Origin: Hericium rajendrae | Lineage: Eukaryota; Basidiomycota; Agaricomycetes; Russulales; Hericiaceae | Direction of reading: 5' to 3' | NCBI GenBank assembly: GCA_033439255.1 | Contig: CM065890.1 | Coordinates: 1,302,001-1,366,000 of the forward strand | Length of the DNA: 64,000 nt | Shown here: piece after piece, positions 3,147 through 64,000 of the stretch | Numbering within the stretch: the first letter of the stretch is position 1 | Layout: each line of letters begins with the position of its first letter | The notes under the pieces: model-generated | Databases searched by the model: none | Told to the model about the DNA's origin: nothing | The model's input: only the letters and a program-made list of their open reading frames with translations | Made by a program: the position numbers and the translations under genes

Positions 3147-4677
3147 TTAGTATCCAGCTCCGCGGGGATCTTGTGCGTTCGAAGGCCGGCGGCCACGAGC
3201 ATTGGCATTCGGTGCTTGGCCACGAGACGAGGCAGATGGGTGCGGCCCCGAACCTTGTTGCTGAGTGTGGGATTGCTGCTGAAGAGAGCCGTACTGGGTA
3301 GAACTGCTAGATGTGTATTGACTAGAAGTGCTGGACGGGTACAACGTAGAAGTGTTGGACGGGTACCCAACAGAAGTGCTGGATGGATTGGTGGACGGGT
3401 ACCCAGAGGAAGTGCCAGACGGATACCGAGAAGAAGTGCCGGACGGGTACCTAGAAGAAGTGCTGGAGGGGTACTCAGCGGAAGTCTGCAGCTGCTGGAT
3501 ATGGCCGCCATTGTACGGGGCCTGAGCGGGGGCATGATGCTGGGAAAGAGCGGGGACGCCAGAGGAACCCTGCGGCTGGGTGTAGGCGCTGCCGTGCGGG
3601 ACCGGGGCGGAAGCATTACGCTGAGACTGAGTATAGCCACCGCTGTACGAGGCCTGAGCAGGGGCATGGTGCTGGGAATGAGCGGGGGCGCCGGATGGGT
3701 AGTGACCAGAATCCTGCGCTTGCGCATAGACGTTGCCGTGCGCGGCCAGAGCGGGAGCGTTGCGCTGGAGCTGAGTGGAGACACCGCCTGTGTGCTGAGC
3801 AGAACTCTGCTGCTGCTGCATATAGCCACCACCGGGCGTGGTCTGAGTGGGAGCACCGTGCTGGGGATAAGGCGGGGGCCAGGGGGTACCGAGCAGACGT
3901 CTGCTGGGAGGAAGCACTGCGCTGGGACTGATTCGGAATGGGACTCTGCTGCTGCGGCTGGGCATGAGCGCCGCCGGATGTGGTCTGAGCAGCGGTACTG
4001 CGCTGAGAATGAGATGAGGCGCCGCGTTTGAGTGCTGAGTGGAGGCCCTGGGCTGGCCCTGAGTGACGCCCTGTTGCGTGTAGGACGAACCAGAGCGTTG
4101 GGGGCCGACGGGTTCGAGGAGACTGGGTCCCGCTCGACGGAAGCTGATACGCCAGAAGAAGGCTAGCAGAATAGTGCCCGTCAGGACCGGGCGGGCCTAC
4201 ATCTCTGTAGGCCATCGCCATGCTTTGTGTTGTCTGCTCTTCGGTGAGAAGGTTGGTGACCCGCCGGCCATTCGCATGAAGATAATTGGCCCCCCAAGCA
4301 CTGCGCTCATCCCGGAGACGCTGCTCGGTGGGCGGAGGCACGCCAGCAACAGCCCCGGCCATTGTCCTCGAACCGGAAGACTGAACATTTCCACTTCCTT
4401 TGCGGCTGGTATGCGCCCGCGCCGACGGTGGGCTGCGTGCCAGAGTCGGAGGAAGAGTACCCGGCATCGCTGCCTACCAGGGTTGAGTTCGTTTCAACAT
4501 CGGAGACGGTTGATCTCGCCGAGGAGAGTTCGGTAGAGGGGGCTGGGCCGGGAACAGCGACGTCTGGGTCGATGAACGGGTCCCAGACTGCCTCGAGCTT
4601 GAAGTATTTGTAGACGTGTGGGGGCGCGACGAGGAGTTCTGATTCCCCGCCGTGTTGGAACTTTGCCTGGACGCCAT
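3147..4677 (-). CDS. Low-complexity Q/S/P/Y-rich repeat protein, unknown function
   Basis: Function is unknown. From the chosen start (4677, MASRQSSNTAG...) the N-terminal part is Ser/Thr/Asn/Arg-rich. A short GT..AG intron of about 45 bases (about 4430-4474) would join it to a mid region with a normal-looking segment (ERSAWGANYLHANGRRVTNL). The C-terminal two thirds is a disordered array rich in Gln, Ser, Pro, Ala, Tyr and His. It has motifs such as GGYTQSQR and GGYMQQQQ and a run of eight-residue YPSGTSSR-like units. It ends in an Arg/Gly-rich tail (RGRRPSNAQDPRGAGY). Composition shows the coding frame switching near 4040 and back near 3885. These look like compensating one-base changes rather than introns. 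An upstream in-frame Met at 4893 is possible. A prion-like or RNA-granule protein is a guess from composition only. Confidence 0.5.
3300..3480 (-). repeat. Coding tandem repeat, 24-base units (YPSGTSSR-type)
   Basis: On the minus strand the reading frame repeats an eight-residue unit of the form YPS-x-TSS-x about seven to eight times, with small changes between units. The DNA shows the matching period (GAAGTGCTGGACGGGTAC-like blocks on the plus strand). It lies within the repeat protein at 3147-4677. Confidence 0.75.
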
Positions 4678-9206: not shown

Positions 9207-10458
9207 CCTAGTCAACGAATACGCAGTGGTGGGGTGTAGAACAAGAATCAAAGGTAGAACCAGAACAACGTGGGCGGGATAAGCCGAAGAATCAAATCTG
9301 CCGACTATAGCGGGAAAATGGCGCGTGCGTTCGCCGCGCGTCTACATCCAGTATCCGGCGTCTGGAGAGGGAGAACATTGAAAGCTCAGATCACGACAGC
9401 CGAGTTTGCTGTTGTAACCAGCGCCTAGAAGTCCGAATAATTCGAGCACAATCCGCGGCAAGGACGTCCTGATATACAAATTACAAGACAATCAGCAGCG
9501 GGCGATGGTCATCTGGAATCGACGGCATGAGAATGAAAGCGAAAGAGCGGTTTACACGCTAGTCAAGGAAGACCAGAAGGAGCTTGTCCATGGAGATAGA
9601 TCGCAAACATTTCTAGCTACGTCATTCCTTGTCCACGCAAGAAACTTATGGACTAAACGGTGTGGAATAGAAAGACGGGACTTACCATCAGCAATGGCTG
9701 TCTTCGCAGATGACAAGTGAACTAGCACAACTCTTTTGTTTCCGTTTTGTTTCCGTTTGTTTCCGTTTGTAATCTAAGTTATCTCTGTCCAATTTGTCGT
9801 TTCGCAGAAAATTGACTGGCGGTGAACCAAGATATTCAGCATTTCAGCATTTAGGAAGACAATATGTATGGCTTGAACCTGAGACAACAAGATAACTGAG
9901 ATGCAAGGACGGGTTAACAGATAATAGATGAGAGCTCAACGTCGACGTCGCACCCATCGCCGAGTCGTCGAACTTGTTGGCGTGGAGCTGATGCCGGGAC
10001 CTGCCGAAATCCGCAGACGGGCGCCAAACGTCACCTACGCGCAACCACCGGTCAACGTTTCAACTACCACCATCCAGCACCCCCAGACTCAACGTTCCAC
10101 AATTAATGCACTCGAGCACCTCGACGCTGCATATCATTTAGAATGTCTTAGCAATTTCAAGCGAAGGCATGGTTACCAATGACAGAGAAATAGACTCGGT
10201 GGCGAGTAAATGACACTTATAGCTCACAGGGTTGTCTTAATCTGATCCTTTATAACAGAGCAGCACCACGGCCGTGTCGATGCCGGTCTGCTGGTCAATA
10301 TACAGGGATCGTGGAAATCGGATTGTTCTCCAAGATAGAGGAATCCTCTTTAAATAAAAATGCTAGCAATTTGATTGAAAGGTGCGCGTCCTTCCCTTCG
10401 ACGCCGACGATTCCATAACACTTTTTTCCTACCATATCTTCCAGTCAGCCCATCTGCG
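9207..10458. other. Intergenic, no gene seen
   Basis: No gene is supported. At about 9735-9770 there is a short tandem run of a GTTTCCGTTT unit. The right third (10200-10440) is probably the promoter of the AA9 gene. Confidence 0.35.
9733..9770 (+). repeat. Short tandem GTTTCCGTTT-type repeat
   Basis: Three to four imperfect copies of a TTGTTTCCG unit lie side by side in intergenic DNA. Confidence 0.6.
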
Positions 10459-12225
10459 ATGTGGCCCACACTCATCTTGTCATTTTTTACAATTACAATA
10501 TTTATTTCAAATGCCTAACGCTCATGGCACCATCATCACAGTCGATGGCAAAAAGTACAAGGGAATCGCCCCCTGGGAGGGCGATTCCCCCAGTCCCAAC
10601 AGACGGTCCATTTCGCCAGGTTGCGACAAATGGACCCGTCAAGAACCTCAAAAGCGCGGATATCGCCTGCGGCCTCGACGCGCAGTTCGCCGGAGGTGTC
10701 GCAGATGCTAAACCGGGGAGTGCTTTGGTGTTCGAGTGGGGCAACATTGGTAGTGAGGATGGTGCGGTAAGGAGCGATTCTTCTCCTGCGATCTGGTCTC
10801 GGCTCATTCTGTTCTGCATAGTGGCCACACGACGTAGGGCCAATCATGACCTATATGGCCCTTTGCAAGGGCAGCTGCACGAAGTTCAATGGTACGGATG
10901 CCCAATGGTTCAAGATCGACCAACTCGGTCAGAAGAAGGATGGGACGTGGTTTCAAGGCGACCTCAGTGCGTACACAATCACGTTAATACGTTACGTGCT
11001 CTTGGATGCGTTGTTGATGCTTTCTCAGTGGCCGGGAAGCCTATCACCCTCTCCCTCCCGAACGACTTGCCCTCCGGCGACTATCTCCTCCGCCATGAGA
11101 TCATTTCACTCCATCTCGCCGAATCAGTAGGAGGCGCCGAGTTCTATCCCAACTGTATTCAAATGCGTGTCGCTGGCGACGGGTCCAGCACGAAGCAACC
11201 GGATAACACCGCGTCGTTTCCTGGCGCGTATAATGCGGATGACCCTGGGATCCATATTAATGCAAGTTTCCTTGGTTTATTATTGGGACAAACACTTATC
11301 ATCTTGCGACGCAGGTTTCAACAATCCGGAGAATTTGAAATACATCTTTCCTGGACCACGACTGTCCGTCTTTATGGTGACGATAGATATGGCATCCACG
11401 GAAGGTGGCCTGGCGCCGTCAGGTGCTCTTCAAGCTGGTGCCATGCCATCACCATCCGCTTTCGCGGATGATAGCACATCAAATTCGGTACTCCAACGTC
11501 ACAGTCTCCTGAAACCACGTCTTCAGACTCAAACTCTGGCGATGACTCGTGCTCGGACAGCTTCTCATCCAACGACAGCGAGCCTTCATCTACTCCTACT
11601 GAAGACCCTGCTGGCGACTCAACGTCTTCCGATGACGACCCGAATGCAGGACCAACTGACGAGCCGTGCTCGTCCGAGGCCCCGTCTTCCGTTGACGGAG
11701 GGTCCTCTGCCGCATCGGAAACAGATGCTCCCACGTTGACCGCAACGCAAACGGCGACTGAGGACACGGGTGTAGTCACAACCGTCGTGACAATGACGGT
11801 CATCGTTACGCCGCTTCCGACACTTCCTCCTACGAGCATGCCATCAAGTGATGATTCAGACGCTTCTACGGCACCATCAGATATCGCGCCTACCTCAAAT
11901 CCCTCAGATGCCTCGATAAGTTCTACTGCCTGGCTCTCTTTCTTCTCAACCAATTGCTTCTTCGCCTGTCACCAGTCCGTCGACGCCTGCGCCGAATCTT
12001 GCTGTGGATCAACCGCTTTCGGCTATGGCAACGCCGTTCACAACGCTTTCTTCGAGCACAAACGCAAGCCCTCGTCCCATGGCAATGAGAAAGCACAGAC
12101 GCAGGCACGATGCAAGCCGCTCTCGTCGGAATGCGCGGCGATGGTCAGGCGGACAGCGTCCCGCCCGATCCGCGCTCCTCGTGCACTCGGAATGGAGCAA
12201 ATTGCCTGATGATAATCCTGGCTGA
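10459..12225 (+). CDS. AA9 lytic polysaccharide monooxygenase with acidic Ser/Thr tail; frame broken
   Basis: A secreted copper enzyme that oxidatively cleaves cellulose or related polysaccharides. The start at 10459 gives a signal peptide (MWPTLILSFFTITIFISNA). The mature protein should begin at the copper-binding His of HGTIITVDGKKYKG. Further landmarks are WEGD, FRQVATNGPVKNLKSADI, FEWGN, an intron, then WPHDVGPIMTYM with the second copper His. After these come FNGTDAQWFKIDQLGQ, an intron, and GDYLLRHEIISLHLAE. GGAEFYPNC holds the axial Tyr, followed by DDPGIHIN, an intron and NNPENLKY. A long Ser/Thr/Asp-rich extension with a TVVTMTVIVTPLPTLP patch follows and ends in a basic cluster (MRKHRRRHDASRSRR). 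Frame changes occur at the signal-peptide junction (about 10515), after WEGD (about 10582), near 11485 and near 11940. All catalytic residues are nevertheless kept. Pseudogene or assembly indels. Confidence 0.85.
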
Positions 12226-25770: not shown

Positions 25771-25807
25771 CAATCAAGCGCCCAAATTTGTTGTTGACGA
25801 CCTCTGA
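25771..25807 (+). promoter_or_regulatory. Upstream block shared by family members A, B and C
   Basis: The block ATCAAGCGC..CCAAATTTGTTG..GACCTCT upstream of copy A recurs upstream of B (about 27221-27262, ATCAAGCGC..GCCAAGTTTGTTGGACCTCT). A weaker form lies upstream of C (about 28231-28265). B and C also share GGCG(T/C)CTAATG and a CACGTG E-box. The blocks probably mark the promoter or the edge of the duplicated unit. Confidence 0.5.
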
Positions 25808-25919
25808 CTCGTACCTTGCGTGCACGGTCTACATTATTATCAAGCTTCACGCTTGGTCTCTCTTGCATCTTGCACTCTCATAGAGTATCTTACTTGAACG
25901 TTTGCCCTCAACCTCCAGC

Positions 25920-26450
25920 ATGCCCCGTATCTCAGAACGCGAATATCATCTCCTAAAGTCGCGTGGCCCGTGTAACGAAGATCATCCTGAAGCGATCCGT
26001 CGCAAAGCACGACGTCGTAAAGTTTGTTCTACCAGTTCTCTTCAAGCTCGTCACTCTGACCATCTTTCTCAGGTGCTTACGTCGAGACTGCAGAAGTTAG
26101 AACCAATGGAACAGCTTCCACCAGAGTACATCATTTCGACCAAGACGACATGCCATCGGCCCCCACGACTGCACTATTGCATCAGCGTCACTTCGCATCA
26201 GCTGTATGACTACGCCGTAAAGAACCACCTCATGCCCGAGCAATACATTCGCGACCGCTCGCATCTTTACTGCGGCATGGATGAGGCTGTCAACGAGCTA
26301 GAGCGGTTATCCGGAGCCATGCTGTCACTTGAAGCGCCAGGCTGGTCCGCCGAGGACTCCTGGCTAGTGGCCCGCTATACCAACTATAACTACTCATACC
26401 ACATGAAGACGGGTCCGCCAGATGACGATGTGTTCGCTCTCATCCGCTGA
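25920..26450 (+). CDS. Family A-E member A; early stop 15 codons before family end
   Basis: First member of an unrecognised family. Exon 1 is 25920-26021 (34 codons, MPRISEREYHLLKSRG.., basic). The intron is 26022-26072. Exon 2 starts at 26073 with VLTSRLQKLEPMEQLPPEYI. Conserved blocks follow: PPRLHY, YDYAVKNHL, GMDEAVNELERLSGAMLSLE, WLVARYTNYN and MKTGPPDDDVFALI. I prefer Met 25920 to 25902 because member D starts at the matching MPYVSERE. The frame stops at TGA (26448-26450), where the other members have Arg (CGA or AGG) of the CREL block. Past it the family C-terminus is still readable (ELATTATPKWYRVT) to TAA at 26493-26495. The loss is therefore small and recent, or TGA is read through, or it is a sequence error. 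Function unknown; no signal peptide or membrane helix. Confidence 0.75.
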   Translation: MPRISEREYHLLKSRGPCNEDHPEAIRRKARRRKVCSTSSLQARHSDHLSQVLTSRLQKLEPMEQLPPEYIISTKTTCHRPPRLHYCISVTSHQLYDYAVKNHLMPEQYIRDRSHLYCGMDEAVNELERLSGAMLSLEAPGWSAEDSWLVARYTNYNYSYHMKTGPPDDDVFALIR

Positions 26451-26498
26451 GAATTGGCCACGACTGCCACGCCAAAATGGTATCGCGTCACCTAATCT

Positions 26499-26555
26499 GT
26501 GAGTATGGAAGGCTGTCCTCTTCTTCTTTCTTCTGACTGCCACTTACTTCAATAG
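26499..26555 (+). other. 3'-UTR intron next to the family stop (member A)
   Basis: A GTGAGT donor begins three bases after the family TAA and the acceptor is TTCAATAG. The same arrangement is found in members B, C and D. Confidence 0.7.
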
Positions 26556-27328
26556 ATTTGCCTTTTTCGCTCAACGTTGCATCACCCTTTATCATCTTTT
26601 CGCTTTCCATAGATCTTAACTTTCAAATTCCCATTATACGGACTCAATACCCCAATAGCTAACCTGTAACATTCACATATTCTGTAAATCGGCACTGCTT
26701 GTCGCTATCCAGCCTACTTTTCTCCCCTCATTTGCCTTCACACAGAGCCACAATAATGAAGGTCGGACAGCCTGGCCCTGTCGGTTAGCCTGCGGTATGT
26801 TCCTCGACAACGGCCGGAAGCTAGGCGAACAGTGAACGACCTCCCATTGTTACCTGCCCCGTCCGAATGGCCAAGCTCTCCGCCAATCGTCACCTCACTC
26901 TGCAGTGCGTCTTTTGTTCCAATTTTGACAATTTGACCTGTCAATCTAGATCTTCGTTATCAGAGTGTCCTTCATCATCCCTATCATCGCCGAAAGCATA
27001 GTGCTCGCGCCAGAGCTCATCTCGACTTGATGTGCGAAACGAGGGCTTTGGATCTCTGCGTCTTCGTCCGCCATCTTCGTACCCGCCATGCTGATCACTC
27101 TTCCTAGTTGCGCGTATTACTATTACGACAAAAGGGGAGACGCATTGACGACTCGGACTCGGAGACACTGTGAGCGTGATGGGCGTCTAATGTATTTACA
27201 CGACCACGTGTTCTTTGTGAATCAAGCGCGGTGCCGCAAGGCGCCAAGTTTGTTGGACCTCTTCCCCTCATCTCCTCGCATTGCATACTTATCTAGCATA
27301 TCATCTCCGATTTCCCTACACTCGAAAC

Positions 27329-27923
27329 ATGACTTGTACTCGGAGACGCGAACACGATTCCAAATGGCGGCGCGGTGCTTGTATCCGTGTTCACCATGCC
27401 ACAACGCGTCAGCCAGCTTGTGGCACGACGAGACGTTGCGAAGTATATACATGTCAGTTTTCTCCGTGTCTGCCATGCTGAGCACACGTTGTAGCATTTT
27501 GTATCGCTACAGAAAGCCTTGGAGCCAATGGAACAGCTGCCACCCGAATATATCGTTCCGTCCAAGCTGAAGAAGCCATGTCCGCGTCCCCCACGATTGC
27601 ATTATGGCCTCGACATTAGTCCCAACGCGTTGTGCAGTTATGCTATCAAGCATCATCTTTTCTCCGCGCAGCTCCTCAATGATGGCACGGCACGATACAG
27701 CGGCATGTTAGACGCTGTCAAGCATCTACAGCGGTTGTGCGGAGTTAAGCTGTCTCTGCAAGCACTGCTTTGGACTGCCGAAGAAACATGGATGATCTCG
27801 CGTTATACGAACTATACTCCTTCTGTCTACATGAGGACAGGCCCATCGGATGAGGAAATTTTTGCTGTCATCTGCCGAGAGCTGGCCATTACCGCGACGC
27901 CAAAATGGTACCAAGTGATGTAA
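27329..27923 (+). CDS. Family A-E member B, intact
   Basis: Exon 1 is 27329-27442 (38 codons, MTCTRRREHDSKWRRG.., basic with several Cys). The intron is 27443-27494 (GTATAT..TTGTAG). Exon 2 is 27495-27923 (142 residues plus stop). Without the intron the two conserved parts lie in different frames; with it they join as TRRCE-HFVSLQKALEPMEQL. Conserved blocks are PRPPRLHYGLDIS, LCSYAIKHHL, AVKHLQRLCGVKLSLQ, WTAEETWMISRYTNY, MRTGPSDEEIFAVICRELA and PKWYQVM at the end. Exon 2 is exactly as long as in member C. No known domain recognised. The predicted protein is about 180 aa, soluble and of mixed charge. Confidence 0.78.
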
Positions 27924-27926
27924 ATT

Positions 27927-27976
27927 GTGAGTACGCTATATTCTCTTCGCTTCCCATCTCTGACTTGCTGCAATAG
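27927..27976 (+). other. 3'-UTR intron next to the stop (member B)
   Basis: A donor GTGAGTACG starts three bases (ATT) after TAA. The acceptor is TGCAATAG. Length 50 bases. Confidence 0.7.
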
Positions 27977-28346
27977 ATCTTGCATTCTTTTATCCAGTAC
28001 TGCGCCACCCCATAACATCGATTCGCCTCTCGTAAATTATTGACTTGCTCAAATACTTCTGTATCTTATCAGTAACAATTATGTTTTGTATATCAGTGCG
28101 ACCTCACTCTAGCAATTTTCACTTCATGCTCCATCTGTGTTCACCAGGCCTACAGTACGACCCGAACATCAACATATCTTAAGATACTCGCAGCTAGAGC
28201 TGCGCTGGGCGCCTAATGCTCACGTGCTCTGGTCAAACGCGCGACTCGGCGGCGAAGTTGCCTCTTTCCTAGATTCACCACCCCCGTCTCCTCCTCGGAT
28301 TCCACAATCTGCCAGTATATAATTCTCGTCTTCTTTCAATCGGAAC

Positions 28347-28938
28347 ATGTCCTACACTGGGAAGCGCGAATGCCGTTCCAAAAAGCTGCGTGGCGCGTGT
28401 ATCCGTGTCCATCCTGCAGCGACCCGCCAGCCAGATTGCGGCAGGACAAGATTCTGCGAGGTTCGTGCATATCAACTCCAATGCTTATCAGGCTCAACGC
28501 CCTCCCCAGTATCTCGTATCGCGACAGAAAGGCTTCGAGCCAATGGATCAGCTCCCACCCGAATACGTTCTTGCGTCCAAACCGAAAAGGTCATGCGGGC
28601 GTCCCCCACGATTGTATTTTGGCCTCGACATCACTTGCGACATGTTGTGCAGTTATGCTATTAAGCATCTTCTTCACCCGGCGGAGCTCACTTTGGACCA
28701 CAAGCAACGATATACTTGCATGCTAAAGGTCGTCGAGCACTTAACCCGGCTATGCGGTGCCAAGTTGTCTCTGCAAGCGCCACTTTGGAGCACAGAAGAT
28801 GAATGGCTGATAGCCCGCTATTCCAACTACAACCCCTTCTCCTATATGAAGACGGGTCCACCGGATGAGGAAGTTTTTGCTATTGTCTGTCGAGAATTGG
28901 CCGTTAGCACCATGCCAAAATGGTACCAATCGATCTAA
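28347..28938 (+). CDS. Family A-E member C, intact
   Basis: Exon 1 is 28347-28460 (38 codons, MSYTGKRECRSKKLRG..), very like member B (RGACIRVHPAATRQPDCG against RGACIRVHHATTRQPACG). The intron is 28461-28509 (GTTCGT..CCCCAG). Exon 2 is 28510-28938, starting YLVSRQKGFEPMDQLPPEY. Blocks are RPPRLYFGLDIT, LCSYAIKHLL, HLTRLCGAKLSLQAPLW, EDEWLIARYSNYNP, MKTGPPDEEVFAIVCRELA and MPKWYQSI. A longer single-frame reading from 28390 exists but ignores the intron that all four visible members share. B and C are the closest pair and lie about 0.4 kb apart, pointing to recent duplication. Confidence 0.78.
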
Positions 28939-28941
28939 ATT

Positions 28942-28990
28942 GTGAGTATGCTAGACTGTTTACTTGATCTTGTCTCACTTCCTGCAATAG
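28942..28990 (+). other. 3'-UTR intron next to the stop (member C)
   Basis: A donor GTGAGTATG starts three bases (ATT) after TAA. The acceptor is TGCAATAG. Length 49 bases. Confidence 0.7.
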
Positions 28991-29279: not shown

Positions 29280-29289
29280 TGCAAGGAGC

Positions 29290-29314
29290 CACGCCACGCC
29301 ACGCCACGCCACGC
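29290..29314 (+). repeat. Short CCACG tandem repeat
   Basis: Five direct copies of a five-base CCACG unit follow the inverted repeat. Confidence 0.7.
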
Positions 29315-29365
29315 CTCAGCTTCGTTATAGCGTCGATTCCAATATCCGATAAATTCATGACTACG

Positions 29366-30702
29366 CTGTCAAGTGCTTTCAAGATCTTTGCGAAGGATTG
29401 TATGGTTCAAACTTCGCGCTGCAAATCATAGCCATCGCGATCCGAGCGCTGGCTCGGGTACATGGCAAGCAGCTCATTGCAAGCGTCGCCAGGCCATATG
29501 ACGATGATTGAATTATATGCAACGCTGCGACAAGCTGGCAAAGGAACGCGAACAGCACGGACGGAGATTCTTCAACCAGTGCCATATCGCCGACAGTCCG
29601 ATATGGTATCCAGTCCCGAATAACGACCTGGGCTTCTCGCTCCCACGAAGTACATCTTTCAAGGATGCTTACAGATGTCTTATCGATGTATGTGTACGTT
29701 ACCTCAGGTAAACGTGCCAGTTATATAGCGACTTCACGTATGCCTGGTTAGCCCACATCCCAGGCCCCATCAGGCTCACGTACTGTATGTCCGAGCAGAC
29801 TCTACCTGTAAGCGTCTTCTTCCTCGGATGGGAGAAAGTGCGCCTCGAAGCGGACGTCATCCTTCCCGTTCCTGTAGGCACCGCTCTGGACGATCAGGAT
29901 GCCCTGCAACGACAGTTCGTTCGCGTCGTGCCCGACTTGAAGCATAGCTACCCGATGAGATGTGAATTCTGCGGTAAGTATGATGGACTGTATGTATGTC
30001 GGACAAGCTGACCTTTCGGCTCGTCGCTCCCAGGCTTGCCGGCTCAAGAGAACCATCTCAACTTGATCAATGCTCCTTTCATGCCGCCGAAGGGGCGGCC
30101 TTGGCGGGGTATCTTGAGCCCAGGACCCCATGCCAATGCATACGTCAGTCTTGAAATCCTCCTCGTAGTCGTGTCGACAAGGGAGCTGAATACGAGCCAC
30201 TTAGGTGCATTCTGTTCGCGAGATGGCCGGCCCTTGCGGGAAGAAGGCACAGGGCATGGCGAACATGTCGGCCTATATGGCCATACTGACCGGAACGCCA
30301 CTCGATCGCGCGTGGATCCAACATGACGACTTTGAGAAGGTGCGCTATCCGAAGAATGGGTCATGCGCCTACTGCCAGAAAGATGAGACTATCGGGAAGG
30401 CGACGAGCCGATGCTCGAAGTGCAAGGCGACGCTGTACTGTAATTCCGCATGTCAGAGGGTTGGTGCACCATTTGTGTAGCACTGTGATCAGCTTATCGG
30501 ACCGAAACATTTGCAGGAGGACTGGTCTAGGCATCGGAAGACGTGCAAATGGATCAAAGGAGTACGATTGGTGCATACCGTACGTGATACTCAAGACTTA
30601 ACGGCTCAGCGGGCTGACTGCGGAAGATAGGATGGGGAAGTCGATGTCTGGAAGGAGAATCCAGAACCGCTGTCGCCGAGCCCCGACTTCCATCCATTCT
30701 GA
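29366..30702 (+). CDS. MYND-type zinc-finger protein
   Basis: A MYND finger is a zinc-binding protein-interaction module. Here it lies at the C-terminal end: CAYCQKDE..CSKCKATLYCNSACQR, completed after an intron by EDWSRHRKTCKWIKG, which supplies the W..H...C part. Exons with consistent frames: to 29691, 29752-29973, 30034-30143, 30205-30459, 30517-30579 and 30631-30702 (ending SPSPDFHPF). The N-terminal region (QRCDKLAKEREQHGRRFFNQ, SEQTLPVSVFFLGWEKVRLE) matches nothing I know. Upstream, a further coding-like frame (FALQIIAIAIRALARVHGK, about 29366-29507) would join only after a one-base change near 29508. The start is therefore uncertain. Confidence 0.75.
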
Positions 30703-41625: not shown

Positions 41626-43249
41626 TTAGAAGCGTTCGGCGGTCATGTTCAGCTCATCGAAGTTGAAGGTCGCCATGAAGGGGTCTGCCTCGCGCCCATC
41701 GTTGCCGTAGCCGATGCCCATGGGCATCTGCTGCTCGGAGTGGCATCCGTTGGTCGGCGTCATATCGAACTTGGGGACGTCGAGCTCGATCGGTGGGATC
41801 CCGTTCACGTCGAAGTCCTCGTTGAAGACGGGCTCCGGACCATTCATCCACATGGTGCCATCCCATGCGTATGGCTGATAACCAAGCTGAGGCGCACCGC
41901 CGCTGTCATGCGCGGGCATCCCGGACACATGCGGCATGCACAGGTCTTCTTGCCGCTGCCATGCGTCTGCTGGGATCTGCACGGTCTCCAGCATATGCGG
42001 TGTCCATGGGCCATGGTGAGGGGACGGCGGGCCCGAAGAGTCCGCGGTGAGGGAGGTAGGCGAGATCAAGCGCATAGGCTCGAACAGAGGCTGATCGGAA
42101 ATCATCAAGGAATGCAGTGGTGCGGCGCTTTGCTTTTCATTGAACATCTGGTGCGATAGCTCAAACGAAACTGGCACCATGTCACCGCCCTGAAAGGAAA
42201 TATCAAAGGCGTCAGCTTCTAGGTGATGCGGAGCTATCAATGGAGAGAAGCACGTACGTGGATGTCCGGATTCCATCCTTGGGGCTGACCGAATGACTCA
42301 GGGAGGAAATCGGTGGACTCGTACTCGTAGTCCATGATGGAACCTGGGAAGATTCGTATGATTCGCGCCGACCAGAAAAGTTAGATGGCGACGACGGCGT
42401 CGACTGCATGAGCAGCTGCGGGATCCGGATCGTCTGCTGGAAAGCCAGGGGAGGAGTAGGTGCAGACGCAGCGCGACGGCCCAAGCGGGGATTAGCTGGG
42501 ACGGCGCCGAGCACGAAAGAAAGCCCGTCGCCATCCGCCTCCGCCTCCTGCTCGTCCTTCTCCTTGCCCTTCCCCGAGCCCTTCTTCCCCTTCACCCGCT
42601 GCGGCCGGTAGACGTAGTGGGGATACATCTCCTCATGTTCCTTCTTCTTCCTCTTCGCGAGGTCCTCCCAGACCTTTCGGTCTTCGGCGGACAGCTGCTT
42701 CCACTGCAGGCTAATCGCCTTCGACAGGTCGGCCTGCCGTTGCTTCTTGGTTGCCAGTGAAGACTTGTCACCATCGCCAGCCTCTAGCGCGTCCAGCGCG
42801 TTGTTACGGTCCTCACAGCACTTGCGGCGGAAAAGAATGAACGCATTCTCCGGCCGCTTGATGTAGTCACCGTCGCCCTTCTTCGGTCGTCGCTCGTTGA
42901 TCTCGTCCGCGGTGGACCGACGCCTGCGACGGGGGCGAGCAGGCGCGGCGGGCGAGGTCTGGGGCGTGGACTCGATAGAGAGGAAGGAGGCGTCGGATGA
43001 GATGGAGGACGAGGGGGTGTGAGTCTTCTTGGGTGCGGGAGTGAGCGTGAGCTGTCTGAGATCGGACTCAAACGGTGAGTTGGACGGCGAAGGAGCGGGA
43101 GGTTTGTTCATAGGGAACGTAAAGGCGCGCGGCGTCGGGGAGATGATGTTCATCGTGGGGGTCTTGAGTTCGTCATCCACGGTCACTTCGAGTGCTGGAG
43201 GACGGACAATAGATGGTGAGCGCCCGATTCTGTGACGTGAGCTGACCAT
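41626..43249 (-). CDS. MATA-type HMG-box transcription factor, copy 1
   Basis: A sequence-specific nuclear DNA-binding protein. I take the start at 43249 (MVSSRHRIGRS); the frame is open further upstream, but a GTAAGT..ACAG intron lies just before. Residues 1-125 are disordered, with a basic run (RPRRRRRSTADEINERRPKKG). The HMG box is at about residues 128-214: YIKRPENAFILFRRKCCEDR, then an unusual insertion (about residues 151-170), SKAISLQWKQLSAEDRKVWE and HEEMYPHYVYRPQR. Near 42320-42350 the frame must change to reach MDYEYESTDFLPESFGQPQG; a 29-base GT..AG segment there would do it, but is very short for an intron. The last intron (GTACGT..TTTCAG) leads to GGDMVPVSFELSHQMF and an acidic Pro/Met-rich tail, which may be the activation region. 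The relation to Ste11/Prf1-like sex regulators is inferred from the box type. Confidence 0.85.
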
Positions 43250-43551
43250 AGACCGAGCAGAAGGACTTACATCGGGCGTGGGTGTCGCGAGTGCGGAGGG
43301 CAGGCATGATTGTTCTATGGGAGGATAATGGGGAAGACGAAGATGGAGCGCAAGAATAAAAGGCGAGATCAGCTCGCCAGTGACCGAAGAACTACGGAAC
43401 ACCCGCGTGTAGCAGGAGGGAGGCAAGGTGGGGTTGCTCAGTGAGGTCGGGAGGGTGTCGCTTGGTTCTTTTGTCTTGCCAGGTCCCGGAGGGCGCAAAA
43501 CAATTGCTAGCAGGTCGCAACGGCAAGACAATACGGAGGGGCGTTAAAGCT

Positions 43552-48091: not shown

Positions 48092-49088
48092 ATGGCTCGC
48101 GGAGTTAAACGGCGGCGGTCACCGTCTTTGGAGCAACCCAAGCGAGAGCCGTCCTCCTCACTTTCGCCTCTTCCACCGTCTCCAGGCCAATCATCATCTA
48201 AATTAGCAGCATCTAACTCCGTGCAGAGGACTAAAAAGTTGAAAGTACTCGCTGATTTCACCGAGACCTCTCCCTATCCGACATTCATTTCGCCGACGGC
48301 AAAGGAAGCCATCGAAATACACGCGATTCTCGCGAAGGAAGCATCCTCAGCACGCGCGAGGCCGTCTGGACCGCTCGAAGCTTCCTTCCGATGCAGCCAA
48401 CTCCGCTGCCACGTGCGGAAACGTCGCGAATGTCATAGACTCACTCATCGGCACCATCCTCTCGCAGAACACGTCCGCGGCTAACTCGACGTCCGCGAAG
48501 CGCAGTCTCGACGATGCATTCGGCCGTCACAATTTCGCGGCGATCGCAGATGCGCCTGCTTCGGCTGTCATAGAGGCGATCAAGCACGGCGGTCTTGCCA
48601 ACCGCAAGGCCGGCAACATACAGCGTCTCTTGCACGAAGTTCACTTCCGCTATGGGGAGTACTCATTGCAGCACCTGGCTGACAAGAGCGTGTCTGACGC
48701 CGCGGCGATGGAGGAACTCGTCTCGTACGGGGGTGTCGGGCCCAAGACCGCGGCCTGCGTGCTTCTCTTCTGCCTGGGCCGCGACTCTTTCGCGGTCGAT
48801 ACACATGTGTTCCGGCTCAGCAAACTGCTCGGCTGGGTCCCTCCGAAGGCGGACAGGGTGCAGACACAGATGCATCTGGACGTGCGGATTCCGGCGGAGT
48901 TAAAGTATCCGTTGCATGTGCTGATGGTGACGCATGGGCGGGCGTGCAAGGGATGCAAAGGGACGGGATCGAAGTCGGCAGGCTGCCCGCTCAAGAGATA
49001 TCTGAAAGAAAGGAAGGACGTCGTAGAAGCGAAGGTTGAGGAGAAAATCGAGGAGGCTGAGGCTTCGACACGAGGCCTTGGTGAATGA
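48092..49088 (+). CDS. HhH-GPD (endonuclease III-like) DNA glycosylase
   Basis: A base-excision-repair enzyme that removes damaged bases in the nucleus or mitochondria. The start at 48092 is MARGVKRRRSPSLEQPKRE, with a nuclear-type basic tail. Next come LADFTETSPYPTFISPTAKE, CGNVANVIDSLIGTILSQNT and GLANRKAGNIQRLLHEV. The helix-hairpin-helix is LVSYGGVGPKTAACVLLFCL, with the Lys expected for a bifunctional enzyme. FAVDTHVFRLSKLLGW holds the catalytic Asp, and the C-terminus has HGRACKGC..GCPLKRYL. The cysteines are C-x2-C-x9-C, not the four-cysteine iron-sulphur pattern of bacterial Nth, so a cluster may be absent. Near 48385, after RPSGPLEAS, one base must be lost or gained to enter the conserved frame. 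The rest is a single exon to 49088. Intronless C-terminal 230 codons. Confidence 0.85.
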
Positions 49089-50811: not shown

Positions 50812-52555
50812 ATGTCGCATTTCCCGAATAGCTATACCAGCCATCTGCACGCCCCGACCGCCCAGCCGCCGTCGCGCCCGACCTCTGTACATTTCGGAAG
50901 TGCAGACCCATGGGGCAATACCGTGCACCCCAGCTTTCACCAGCCACTCGACGCGCCTTTGTACCCCCACGGCTACGCATCTCCATCCCAGATACCTCCA
51001 CAGCGATATGTATCCTCCGGCTATACCCCGTTCTCGCCTCCGCCACCCCCATCGAATAGCCATTATGCCATGCCGCCGCCGCTGCCGATGAGTGGCTCAC
51101 ACTTCGCGTTCAGTGAGCCACTCCAGCCAGTATTCTCCCCACCGCAGGCTGTGCCCGAGGCGATGCATACGCATTATAACGGAGGTTACAGCAGTTTCGC
51201 GCTTCCGCCCCGTCCGACACCCGTTATTAACCCGCCGTGGCCAGCGAATTCAGAATATGGACACCGGCGGCCATGGGATCCGCCGGGCCAGTTCGGGCCA
51301 GAAGATCTGCACGCGGATATGGCATTCACCAATGGCGGCTACGGAGACGTATTGACGCGTTCGGCGCGTCCAGTGAGGAATGCACTCTCGCAGAGTTTGT
51401 TCGAGCCAGATGCGGTCATTACAGAAGAGACGCCTGCGAGCCCGAAGCAGATGAAGCGGAGGCGGAAGCGCCTGATGGGGTGGGTCAAGAAGTTGGCGAA
51501 CAAGAAGGGCCAGATGATCAGGCTCCAGAATCATCGGTGCACGTACCTGGTATGCTATGTGTTGACTCGTGCTCTTTTACATGTGTATTGAGCTGTAAAC
51601 CGAGACCTTGTTTTGGAAGGGTCGCACACGAATGGCAAGGAGCGCAGAAACTCGACCGTAGATCCACAGCATGCACCCATAGCGCCAGAAGAATGGAGGG
51701 CGTTTTCGTGGTTCGCGAGCCCCGTGATCGCGGATGTGCGCGTCGACAACCTCAGTGCGTCCATCCCGGCACCGATGCGCCCACTCTGATGACACTGACG
51801 CATTGACCCTAGGCCCGCGGCCAGATCTGTACCCTGCGATGCAGCAGGTGCGAAGCGCGCAAGAGCTTGTTGGACGGCTGCGCGGGCCTAATCGCTCGCC
51901 GCACCCGGAGAACTGGATACCAGGGTTCCGGCTGGGCACGATACCGCCGCGCCCCGTGGCGTTTCCGCCGCCTGATCCGAGCGCGCGTGCGCGGCCTTCC
52001 CAGGAGACGACGCTAAATCCGTTTCTGGAGCATCGCCTGTGCGGGATGTCGCCGCTGCAGTGGGACTGCGCACTGAAGTCAAGTTCAACGTCGCGTTCAC
52101 GACCGAGTCGACGCACCCGCCGAACAATGTCATCCTTATGCAGGAGGGCGATCTCTACCAGCCAGCGACCTACCCCTTGCGTACTTCCATGCGCATCACG
52201 GGGATAGCAGACGACAGGAAGACGGACCTGTGGCCCGTGGAGATATATAATGCACAGGGCGTGCTCTGCGGCGACGTGCTGCACACGATCTATACGAATT
52301 TCAATCAGCGCATGACGAGGGAGGAATGGAACAGCTTGCCGCCAGAGCGACAGCGACGGGTCAGCTTGGCGTGGCAGACGCGTCATCGCATCGCCGCCGA
52401 AGCAGAGGATGGATTCAGAAGGGACGGAGCCTCAGGAGGCACCTCATGGGTCGGACCCGTTGCGGAGAGTGGATTACTTGCTCGACAGGATTCAGTTCCG
52501 CGGGCTTGCGCCCAGGGACGATGGGACGTGGGTCGTGTGTCTCGGCCCGCCGTAA
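50812..52555 (+). CDS. DUF6699-domain protein with proline-rich N-terminus
   Basis: Function unknown; DUF6699 proteins are abundant in basidiomycetes. From 50812 (MSHFPNSYTSHLHAP) a Pro/Tyr/Ser-rich disordered region runs for about 200 residues. A basic stretch follows (MKRRRKRLMGWVKKLANKKG). The next parts are DDQAPESSVHVPG, spliced through GTATGC..GGAAG to SHTNGKERRNSTVDPQH and EEWRAFSWFASPVIADVRVD. A second intron (GTGCGT..CCTAG, about 51752-51812) leads to PRPDLYPAMQQVRSAQELVG, NPFLEHRLCGMSPLQWD and the DUF6699 core. The core has EVKFNVAFTTE, YQPATYPLRTSMRITG, WPVEIYNAQGVLCGDVLHTI and MTREEWNSLP, and ends with RVDYLLDRIQFRGLAPRDDG and CLGPP at 52555. Frame changes of one base are needed at about 51508 (in a G run), 52068 (inside QWD-RTEV) and 52398. 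The conserved protein on each side argues for assembly indels. Confidence 0.75.
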
Positions 52556-52828
52556 TGGAGGCGACGATGCTACGACCGTCGTGGGAGGTCATGGTACGAT
52601 CATGAGCACTCGAGTCGATCTGACATGTTAAAGATGGTGCCACAATCACACACCTCCATTGTATACTGAGCTTCCGTCCATCCGGTCCATATTCCATTAC
52701 CGTCGTTGCGCTATTTTTGCATATATGCTTTTAGTTTTTGGCTTTCGGGGTTGTTTCAATTCGGGCTATGCTTTGTACATATTTGTACCTGTGTAATTGT
52801 CGATAATGTTGTAATGTAACTCGAGGAC
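52556..52828. other. Convergent 3' flanks
   Basis: A/T-rich intergenic DNA between the DUF6699 gene (+) and a hypothetical minus-strand gene. Nothing else seen. Confidence 0.45.
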
Positions 52829-62802: not shown

Positions 62803-63328
62803 CTACATCACTCGGTACCACCTTGGCAAGGCGGTTATGGCTAGCTCCCTGCAGATGATAGCAAACACTTCGTCATCTGGCGTGCCCGTCTTCGTGTAGG
62901 TGAAACTGTGACTGTGATTCGAATAGCGGGAGATCATCCATTCTTCCTCGGCAGTCCAGAGTGGCGCTTGCAGAGACAGGCTGGCTCCACACAACTGCCC
63001 AAGATGCGCGATAGCAGTTGACACGAAGTACCGTTCCGTGTCGTCGGTGATGAGCTCGGCGGAGAGAAGGCAACGTTCGATGGCATAATTGAGCAACGCG
63101 TCGAAGCTGACGCTGAGGCCATAATGGAATTTTGGGGAAGCCCGCACGGCTCTTTCAGCTTGGACGGAATAATATATTCAGATGGGAGCTGTTCCACTGG
63201 CTCGAAAACCTTTTGTCGCAATACGAGGTACTGTAGAAGGTTCAGTAAGGTAGACGTGAAGAGAACTCTTGTGCACGAACTTTGCAACCTGTTGGGTGAG
63301 GCTTCTCGCGTTCTGAGACGTAGGGCAT
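62803..63328 (-). pseudogene. Family A-E member D, one frame break
   Basis: Exon 1 is 63328-63281 (16 codons, MPYVSEREKPHPTGCK), shorter than in A-C but with the same start motif as A. The intron is 63280-63231 (GTTCGT..CTACAG). Exon 2 starts YLVLRQKVFEPVEQLPSEYI. After PCGLP (near 63141) the frame is lost where the others read RPPRL, apparently by one missing base in a C run. It then resumes as FHYGLSVSFDALLNYAIERC, HLGQLCGASLSLQAPLW, EEEWMISRYSNHSHSFTY, TGTPDDEVFAIICRELA and LPRWYRVM at 62803. About four residues are missing before the AIAHLGQLCG block. Most similar to B and C. Either a young pseudogene or an assembly indel. Confidence 0.72.
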
Positions 63329-63769
63329 CCTGGCAGAGCACCAGGCTGAGAGCTGAAGCGTTGCGATGTTCGTAGAATATTGCGCCGAGGCACGAGCGGA
63401 GGAGACAAGGTCGACCATTGCGGAGATTCAACGCACAATGGCGTCCTTCATTGTTCGCCCATGTTCGGGCTGTTCGGCGATAGATGCGGGTTACGCGTGT
63501 TGCTTGTAGCACGAGCTCGCCGCGGAATGTGGGAGGAAAATAGTATTGCTCTGATAAAACTCCTAGGCGTTATGGACTAACTGGTGAAAAAAAAAATAGA
63601 ATAGCTCGAGATTTTATGTGAAGCGGATAAACATTTTCTGGTGCTGAAAAGACAGAGGAGAGTGGAAACCATTCTATTCAATGGCAATCAGGACTTATAA
63701 GGCGCGTAATCAAGTTAACATGCTCACGGACTAAACGACCTACCATTTGGGTGTCGCGGTCGAACCCAA

Positions 63770-64000
63770 CTACCGGTGAATAATGTCAAATACTTCTTTG
63801 GCGTCCGATGGTCCCGCCCGACGCGTATGATTCTAGTAGAGGGCCACTAGCCATGATCCTCCGACAGCCCAGCGCGGTCTTTCCAGAGACAAATTGGCAC
63901 CAGTCAACTCCTTCAGCACCTTGACCACATCTACCATGCCACATGATCGATAGCGAACGCTGTGGACGAGTTTCTTGACATCGGGACAATGTTTGAGAGC
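63770..64000 (-). pseudogene. Family A-E member E, cut by the window edge
   Basis: On the minus strand one frame reads GMVDVVKVLKELTGANLSLE, RWAVGGSWLVALY, then a TAG. It continues in the same frame with NHTRRAGPSDAKEVFDIIHR to a stop at 63770. This aligns with GMDEAVNELERLSGAMLSLE..WLVARYTNY..TGPPDDDVFALIR of member A. It ends at the IIHR position, without the CRELA..PKWY tail. The 5' part lies beyond the window. With an internal stop and a lost tail it is probably a relic, and the most diverged of the five. Confidence 0.55.

What the first reader, a model, noticed from the sequence alone, without database searches (positions are those of the whole stretch)
25771..28990. Tandem trio of an unrecognised ~180-residue protein family (members A, B, C)
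Three adjacent genes share a fixed structure: a basic, fast-changing first exon of 34-38 codons, one intron of about 50 nt, and a 141-143 codon conserved second exon. Shared blocks include FEPMEQLPPEY, RPPRLHYGLDI, L(C/S)GA.LSLQAPLW, EWMISRYTNYN and MKTGPPDEEVFAIICREL. I know no domain with this set. The conserved splice model corrects the naive single-frame reading in every copy. Local duplication with a variable N-terminus suggests fast lineage-specific evolution.
Basis: partly seen in the sequence, partly recalled or inferred. Interest (0 to 1): 0.7.

Follow-up and report, generated by a model that had tools for sequence, protein, structure and literature searches.

The report
Large unnamed fungal gene family
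The three similar genes are real, but they are a small sample of an unnamed family of about fifty copies in what is probably a wood-decay fungus, some intact and some broken, encoding small proteins whose function cannot yet be told from sequence.

Summary
A, B and C are related two-exon genes with a phase-0 intron of 49-52 nt. B and C are intact (180 codons each). A is not: a TGA stops it after 125 exon-2 codons, although the next 14 codons still match its relatives.

The "trio" is not the unit. Two more copies, D and E, lie at the window's right end and a sixth, F, just outside; all three look broken. The genome holds at least 50 places encoding this domain, 34 within 360 kb of one contig. 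With modest support A groups with copies elsewhere, so this is a dispersed birth-and-death family, not a simple local triplication.

No Pfam, NCBIfam or PDB sequence convincingly matches it; bacterial and viral searches gave nothing convincing. Structure prediction was at best moderate (pLDDT 70) and found no fold match. Selection is purifying in both exons; exon 1 is looser in 8 of 11 pairs. No secretion-like or membrane-like stretch and no obvious catalytic set are seen. My best guess is an intracellular recognition or adaptor module; that step is inference. An unnamed, expanded family is a familiar kind of thing: moderately low interest.

The parts
25920..26021 (+). Gene A exon 1 (34 codons, basic: K+R minus D+E = +6)
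26022..26072 (+). Gene A intron, 51 nt, phase 0
26073..26450 (+). Gene A exon 2: 125 codons, then in-frame TGA at 26448-26450; family-like sequence continues for 14 codons to TAA at 26493
27329..27442 (+). Gene B exon 1 (38 codons, +7)
27443..27494 (+). Gene B intron, 52 nt, phase 0; donor GTATAT assigned by position, outside the script's donor pattern
   Evidence: no model
27495..27923 (+). Gene B exon 2, 142 codons + TAA, intact
27927..27976 (+). Putative 3' UTR intron of B (GTGAGT...TAG, 50 nt), 3 nt after the stop
   Evidence: homologous signals in A (26499-26555) and C
28347..28460 (+). Gene C exon 1 (38 codons, +7)
28461..28509 (+). Gene C intron, 49 nt, phase 0
28510..28938 (+). Gene C exon 2, 142 codons + TAA, intact
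28942..28990 (+). Putative 3' UTR intron of C (GTGAGT...TAG, 49 nt)
62812..63206 (-). Copy D: same domain in two reading frames (query residues 14-133 at E 6.6e-37, residues 2-30 at E 0.014), so probably frameshifted
63740..64000 (-). Copy E: degenerate copy with 3 in-frame TAG in the match, which continues past the window end

Best explanation
A, B and C belong to an unnamed multigene family of this fungus that evolves by birth and death. The genes make proteins of about 180-215 residues in most models, soluble and not secreted as far as hydropathy shows. Exon 1 codes a short N-terminal segment: basic in the clade of A, B and C, with a D..GN motif (in its fullest form like EYELD..GN.IPD) in 11 of 16 other members listed. 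Exon 2 codes one conserved domain of about 130 residues, predicted mixed alpha/beta, with conserved Leu, Trp, Tyr and Asn positions and usually ending P.W(Y/H). Shown: the family, its copy number, the splice model, purifying selection, and decay of some copies. Inferred: the domain is a binding (recognition or adaptor) module and not an enzyme, the variable N-terminus sets partner or location, and copies are gained and lost as binding needs change.
For: At least 50 domain places in the genome, 34 within C7:460-820 kb (merging places with E <= 0.001). Tree of 38 rows with several supported subclades of neighbouring copies. Omega below 1 in 11 of 11 pairs for both exons. Decay: A (TGA), D and F (frame breaks), E (stops), C4:3339 kb (1 TGA), plus broken or fragmentary C7 copies at 662.4, 669.6, 699.7 and 810.1 kb. 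No membrane-like segment in A, B or C (maximum 19-residue hydropathy 0.42-0.97). The only invariant alignment column among 29 members is an Asn; the near-invariant ones are four Leu and one Trp, which does not look catalytic. Neighbouring pairs of domain places on C3 and twice on C7 suggest a self-contained domain.
Against: The functional step has no direct support: no expression data, no homologue of known function, no fold match. The only usable structural model is of moderate confidence, made from 4 sequences, and a second run collapsed (pLDDT 47). Missing catalytic signs do not exclude an enzyme. Some copies could be untranscribed. Restriction to fungi was not tested against any eukaryotic collection.
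Confidence: 0.4

Rival explanations
1. The family is a polymorphic self/non-self or parasite-recognition repertoire of the fungus: many diverged copies, each recognising a different partner.
For: High copy number in clusters, copies gained and lost, looser constraint in exon 1 in 8 of 11 pairs.
Against: No known recognition-type partner domain appeared in the 10 flanking ORFs scanned (10 of 118 non-family ORFs of at least 130 aa, chosen among the longer ones, within about 1.5 kb of members). Omega is below 1 in every pair; no positive selection seen. No population data.
Confidence: 0.15
2. The clade with basic exon 1 (A, B, C and C7/C6 kin) became nuclear or nucleic-acid-binding proteins through the basic N-terminal segment.
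For: Net charge of exon 1 is +6 to +11 in the 8 clade members listed, against -7 to +9 in 16 other members.
Against: One other member is as basic (L014, +9). No convincing DNA-binding family match and no fold match.
Confidence: 0.2
3. Most copies are passengers: duplicated gene debris spread by unequal crossing-over or mobile elements, without function.
For: Four of the six C13 cluster copies look broken. One flanking ORF has a sub-cut-off reverse-transcriptase zinc-finger match (21.5 bits against a cut-off of 27.5).
Against: Purifying selection in all 11 pairs. Of 34 C7 places, four are fragmentary or broken by what was seen. The C6/C7 pair keeps its intron and shares 748 bp at 84%, arguing against retrocopying.
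Confidence: 0.1
4. It is a divergent member of a described domain family that sequence models miss.
Against: No Pfam match shared by more than 2 of 29 members, no PDB sequence match, no Foldseek match with E below 0.3.
Confidence: 0.3

Closest known systems
Unnamed hypothetical proteins of Polyporales and other Agaricomycetes (recalled, not tested here)
   Same: I recall similar hypothetical proteins with a GN.IPD-like start and PP.WY-like end in wood-decay fungi; a lead from memory only.
   Different: No eukaryotic protein collection was available, so neither membership nor distribution was tested.
Tandemly expanded, lineage-restricted orphan families under birth-and-death evolution (general kind, from general knowledge)
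   Same: Clusters, dispersed outliers, intact and broken copies, looser N-terminus.
   Different: Nothing found that sets it apart except its own sequence motifs; restriction to a lineage was not tested against eukaryotes.
DUF6699
   Same: Also a Pfam family of unknown function in this window (51976-52602).
   Different: No scanned family member matches it (29 members, E <= 1).

Membership tests
Any Pfam-A family | convincing match to a Pfam model | tested here: not met
   0 families for C; among 29 members, 10 families matched, each by at most 2 members, best E 0.0077; cut-offs are not printed for members other than C
Any family with a solved structure | profile match to a PDB chain sequence | tested here: not met
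   0 matches at E<=10 with the 29-row profile; single-sequence best E 0.47
Any known fold | Foldseek match to PDB or BFVD | tested here: inconclusive
   best E 3.2 and 0.37; model only pLDDT 69.9, pTM 0.61
Bacterial, archaeal or viral homologue | encoded relative in GTDB or IMG/VR contigs | tested here: not met
   (4-row query, two peptide patterns): 56 pattern matches in GTDB contigs, none a relative by tblastn; (C alone): two 25-residue matches in IMG/VR (E 4e-4, 6e-4), with no further family resemblance in the 900-base stretches read. These scans reach only relatives that keep the chosen patterns
The family defined here (two-exon gene, exon-2 domain ending P.W(Y/H)) | homologous phase-0 intron before the exon-2 domain | tested here: met
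   26 of 37 members modelled, best model phase 0 in 25 (score favours phase 0), 11 without a model; for B by hand
Secreted effector-like small proteins | N-terminal hydrophobic signal segment | tested here: not met
   maximum 12-residue hydropathy in the first 41 residues -0.74 (A), -0.20 (B), 0.52 (C); no dedicated signal-peptide predictor available
Polyporales hypothetical proteins (recalled) | sequence match in other basidiomycete proteomes | not testable with these tools
   no eukaryotic collection available; the window's genome has no held relatives

The most novel reading that the evidence does not exclude
A previously undescribed alpha/beta domain used by a wood-decay fungus as a large, fast-turning-over intracellular recognition repertoire, with the N-terminal exon swapped or re-evolved between clades to change target or location.
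Probability: 0.08. Interest if true: 0.65.

Novelty: new member of a known kind. Interest (0 to 1): 0.3.

Why it matters
About fifty copies of an unnamed domain in one fungus is a sizeable gap in annotation. A Pfam-style model built from these members would annotate it wherever it occurs. If the copies vary between strains they would be candidates for a fungal recognition system; otherwise the finding is an ordinary expanded orphan family.

Tried and rejected
Rejected: 'tandem trio' as the unit, since the genome shows at least 50 places. Rejected: A as an intact third gene (TGA). Rejected: viral origin. The two IMG/VR loci match only residues 1-25, and no further family sequence is seen in the 900-base stretches read. 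Rejected: bacterial relatives, within the reach. Tried without result: Foldseek PDB, Foldseek BFVD, PHROGs (one unnamed family, 1 of 29 members, E 0.008), NCBIfam. A second structure prediction with B first was poor (pLDDT 47) and was not searched. Paper searches (listings and abstract starts only, no paper opened) showed nothing about such a family; one search returned no paper, and the terms were general because the family has no name, so this does not show it is unpublished. I did not hand loci from the genome search to the structure predictor, since its stated rule does not list them; that limited it to 4 window sequences.

Rows used and dropped. Alignment A1 has 29 rows: 29 of the 30 loci, L001-L003 being entered by their window coordinates; E (L028) was left out as degenerate, A was ended at its stop, and D and F entered only with the part in their main frame. 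The tree has 38 rows: those 29 plus one member from each of 9 of the 10 loci (the tenth, L031, is F, already present). Not in the tree: E, the second copies in L033, L036 and L040, C7:718.8 kb, the C4 copies at 3338 and 3339 kb, and the fragmentary C7 places. The count was typed in; one weak match on C11 (1267 kb, E 0.007) was left out.

Full report
What was checked. The window is part of a 46.8 Mb, 19-contig genome (C13:1302001-1366000). Introns and an ORF matching AA9 (LPMO) in the window fit a wood-decay fungus; that is inference, and the species was not identified.

The three genes. Splice models fit all three copies at one homologous place. A has 34 + 125 codons then TGA; B and C have 38 + 142 codons each. 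The introns are 51, 52 and 49 nt, phase 0. B's donor (GTATAT) was assigned by homologous position because it lies outside the script's donor pattern. In A the sequence after the TGA still reads ELATTATPKWYRVT before the next stop, close to B's ELAITATPKWYQVM, so the stop looks recent, or is an assembly error. B and C are far more alike than chance, and A is clearly related.

More copies. In one search the C exon 2 finds 50 matches at E <= 10 (50 candidates scored, so capped; the weakest have E 0.1-0.4). Merging places with E <= 0.001 gives 50 distinct domain places: 34 on C7 (460-820 kb), 7 on C13, 3 on C4, 2 on C3, and one each on C1, C6, C9 and C11. The two C3 and four of the C7 places are neighbouring pairs that may be two-domain genes, and some places are fragments, so the gene count is somewhat lower; on the other hand the search scores only its best candidates. 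On C13, D and F appear in two reading frames each (for D the second frame is a weak 29-residue match, E 0.014) and E carries three TAG, so four of the six C13 cluster copies (A, D, E, F) look broken.

Relationships. In a 38-row tree the clade of A, B, C, D, F, four C7 copies and one C6 copy is fully supported (100/100). Within it D joins B and C (99/93; B with C only 87/10), while A joins the C7/C6/F group with modest support (88/80). So A, B and C are probably not each other's closest relatives. D and F are in the tree with part of their sequence only. The C6 copy and a C7 copy share 748 bp at 84% identity including the intron, pointing to DNA-level duplication.

Exon 1. Of 16 members outside this clade whose exon 1 was listed, 11 carry a D..GN-type motif, in its fullest form like EYELD..GN.IPD followed by GYKLT (counted by eye); in the 8 listed members of the clade of A, B and C it is a basic segment (+6 to +11) without that motif. 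Omega was higher in exon 1 than exon 2 in 8 of 11 pairs (6 of 8; A-B and A-C but not B-C). It was below 1 in every pair for both exons, the highest being 0.82 for exon 1 of the C6/C7 pair. The pairs share members, exon 1 is short, one search used the matched part of exon 2, and several dS values are near or above 1, so the figures are rough.

An intron after the stop. A GTGAGT donor with a matching acceptor follows the stop of B and C at 3 nt, and the old stop position of A likewise. Similar signals are visible by eye in several relatives. I read these as 3' UTR introns; unproven without cDNA.

Identity. Pfam, NCBIfam and PDB sequences give no convincing match. PHROGs gives one unnamed weak match for one of 29 members. 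GTDB and IMG/VR gave no convincing relative. The first AlphaFold model (C exon 2, 4 sequences) has pLDDT 69.9 and pTM 0.61, with order strand-helix-helix-helix-strand-helix-helix. Foldseek found nothing (best E 3.2 in PDB, 0.37 in BFVD). A second model failed (pLDDT 47). The fold is therefore open.

Function. No secretion-like or membrane-like segment, no catalytic-looking pattern among conserved columns, a domain that seems self-contained and turnover of copies make a binding or adaptor role my first guess, at about 0.4 including the structural claims. A recognition repertoire, a nuclear role for the basic clade, and a hidden known fold remain open; these readings overlap, so their odds do not sum to one.

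Literature. Five paper searches (listings and abstract starts seen, no paper opened) showed nothing on this family. Terms were general, so this says little about whether it is in print.

Verdict. A real, sizeable, unnamed family; the trio is a small sample with one member probably broken. Interesting for annotation, ordinary in kind.

Noticed in passing
window 10419-11468 (+): ORF with a strong AA9 (LPMO) match, E 2.4e-32.
   Followed up: no
window 30205-30480 (+): MYND zinc finger ORF downstream of gene C, E 7.9e-7.
   Followed up: no
window 42215-43543 (-): HMG-box ORF, E 3.6e-9.
   Followed up: no
window 48243-49085 (+): HhH-GPD DNA repair ORF, E 1e-12.
   Followed up: no
window 51976-52602 (+): DUF6699 ORF, E 2.5e-19.
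   Followed up: no
L036, L040 and C7:718.1-719.2 kb: Neighbouring pairs of the family domain, possibly two-domain proteins.
   Followed up: partly
L033, minus strand, upstream of the copy at C7:461601-461957: Repeats of a TTTGCTCGC-like unit upstream of this copy (by eye).
   Followed up: no
window about 29289-29316 (+): Short run of CCACG repeats (by eye).
   Followed up: no
L023:153-827 (+): Per1-like gene (PF04080, E 1.8e-47) beside a C7 family member.
   Followed up: no
L026, start of exon 2: A TAG lies where relatives read on after the usual acceptor; the script's model uses an acceptor just after it, so this copy may be broken or spliced differently.
   Followed up: partly
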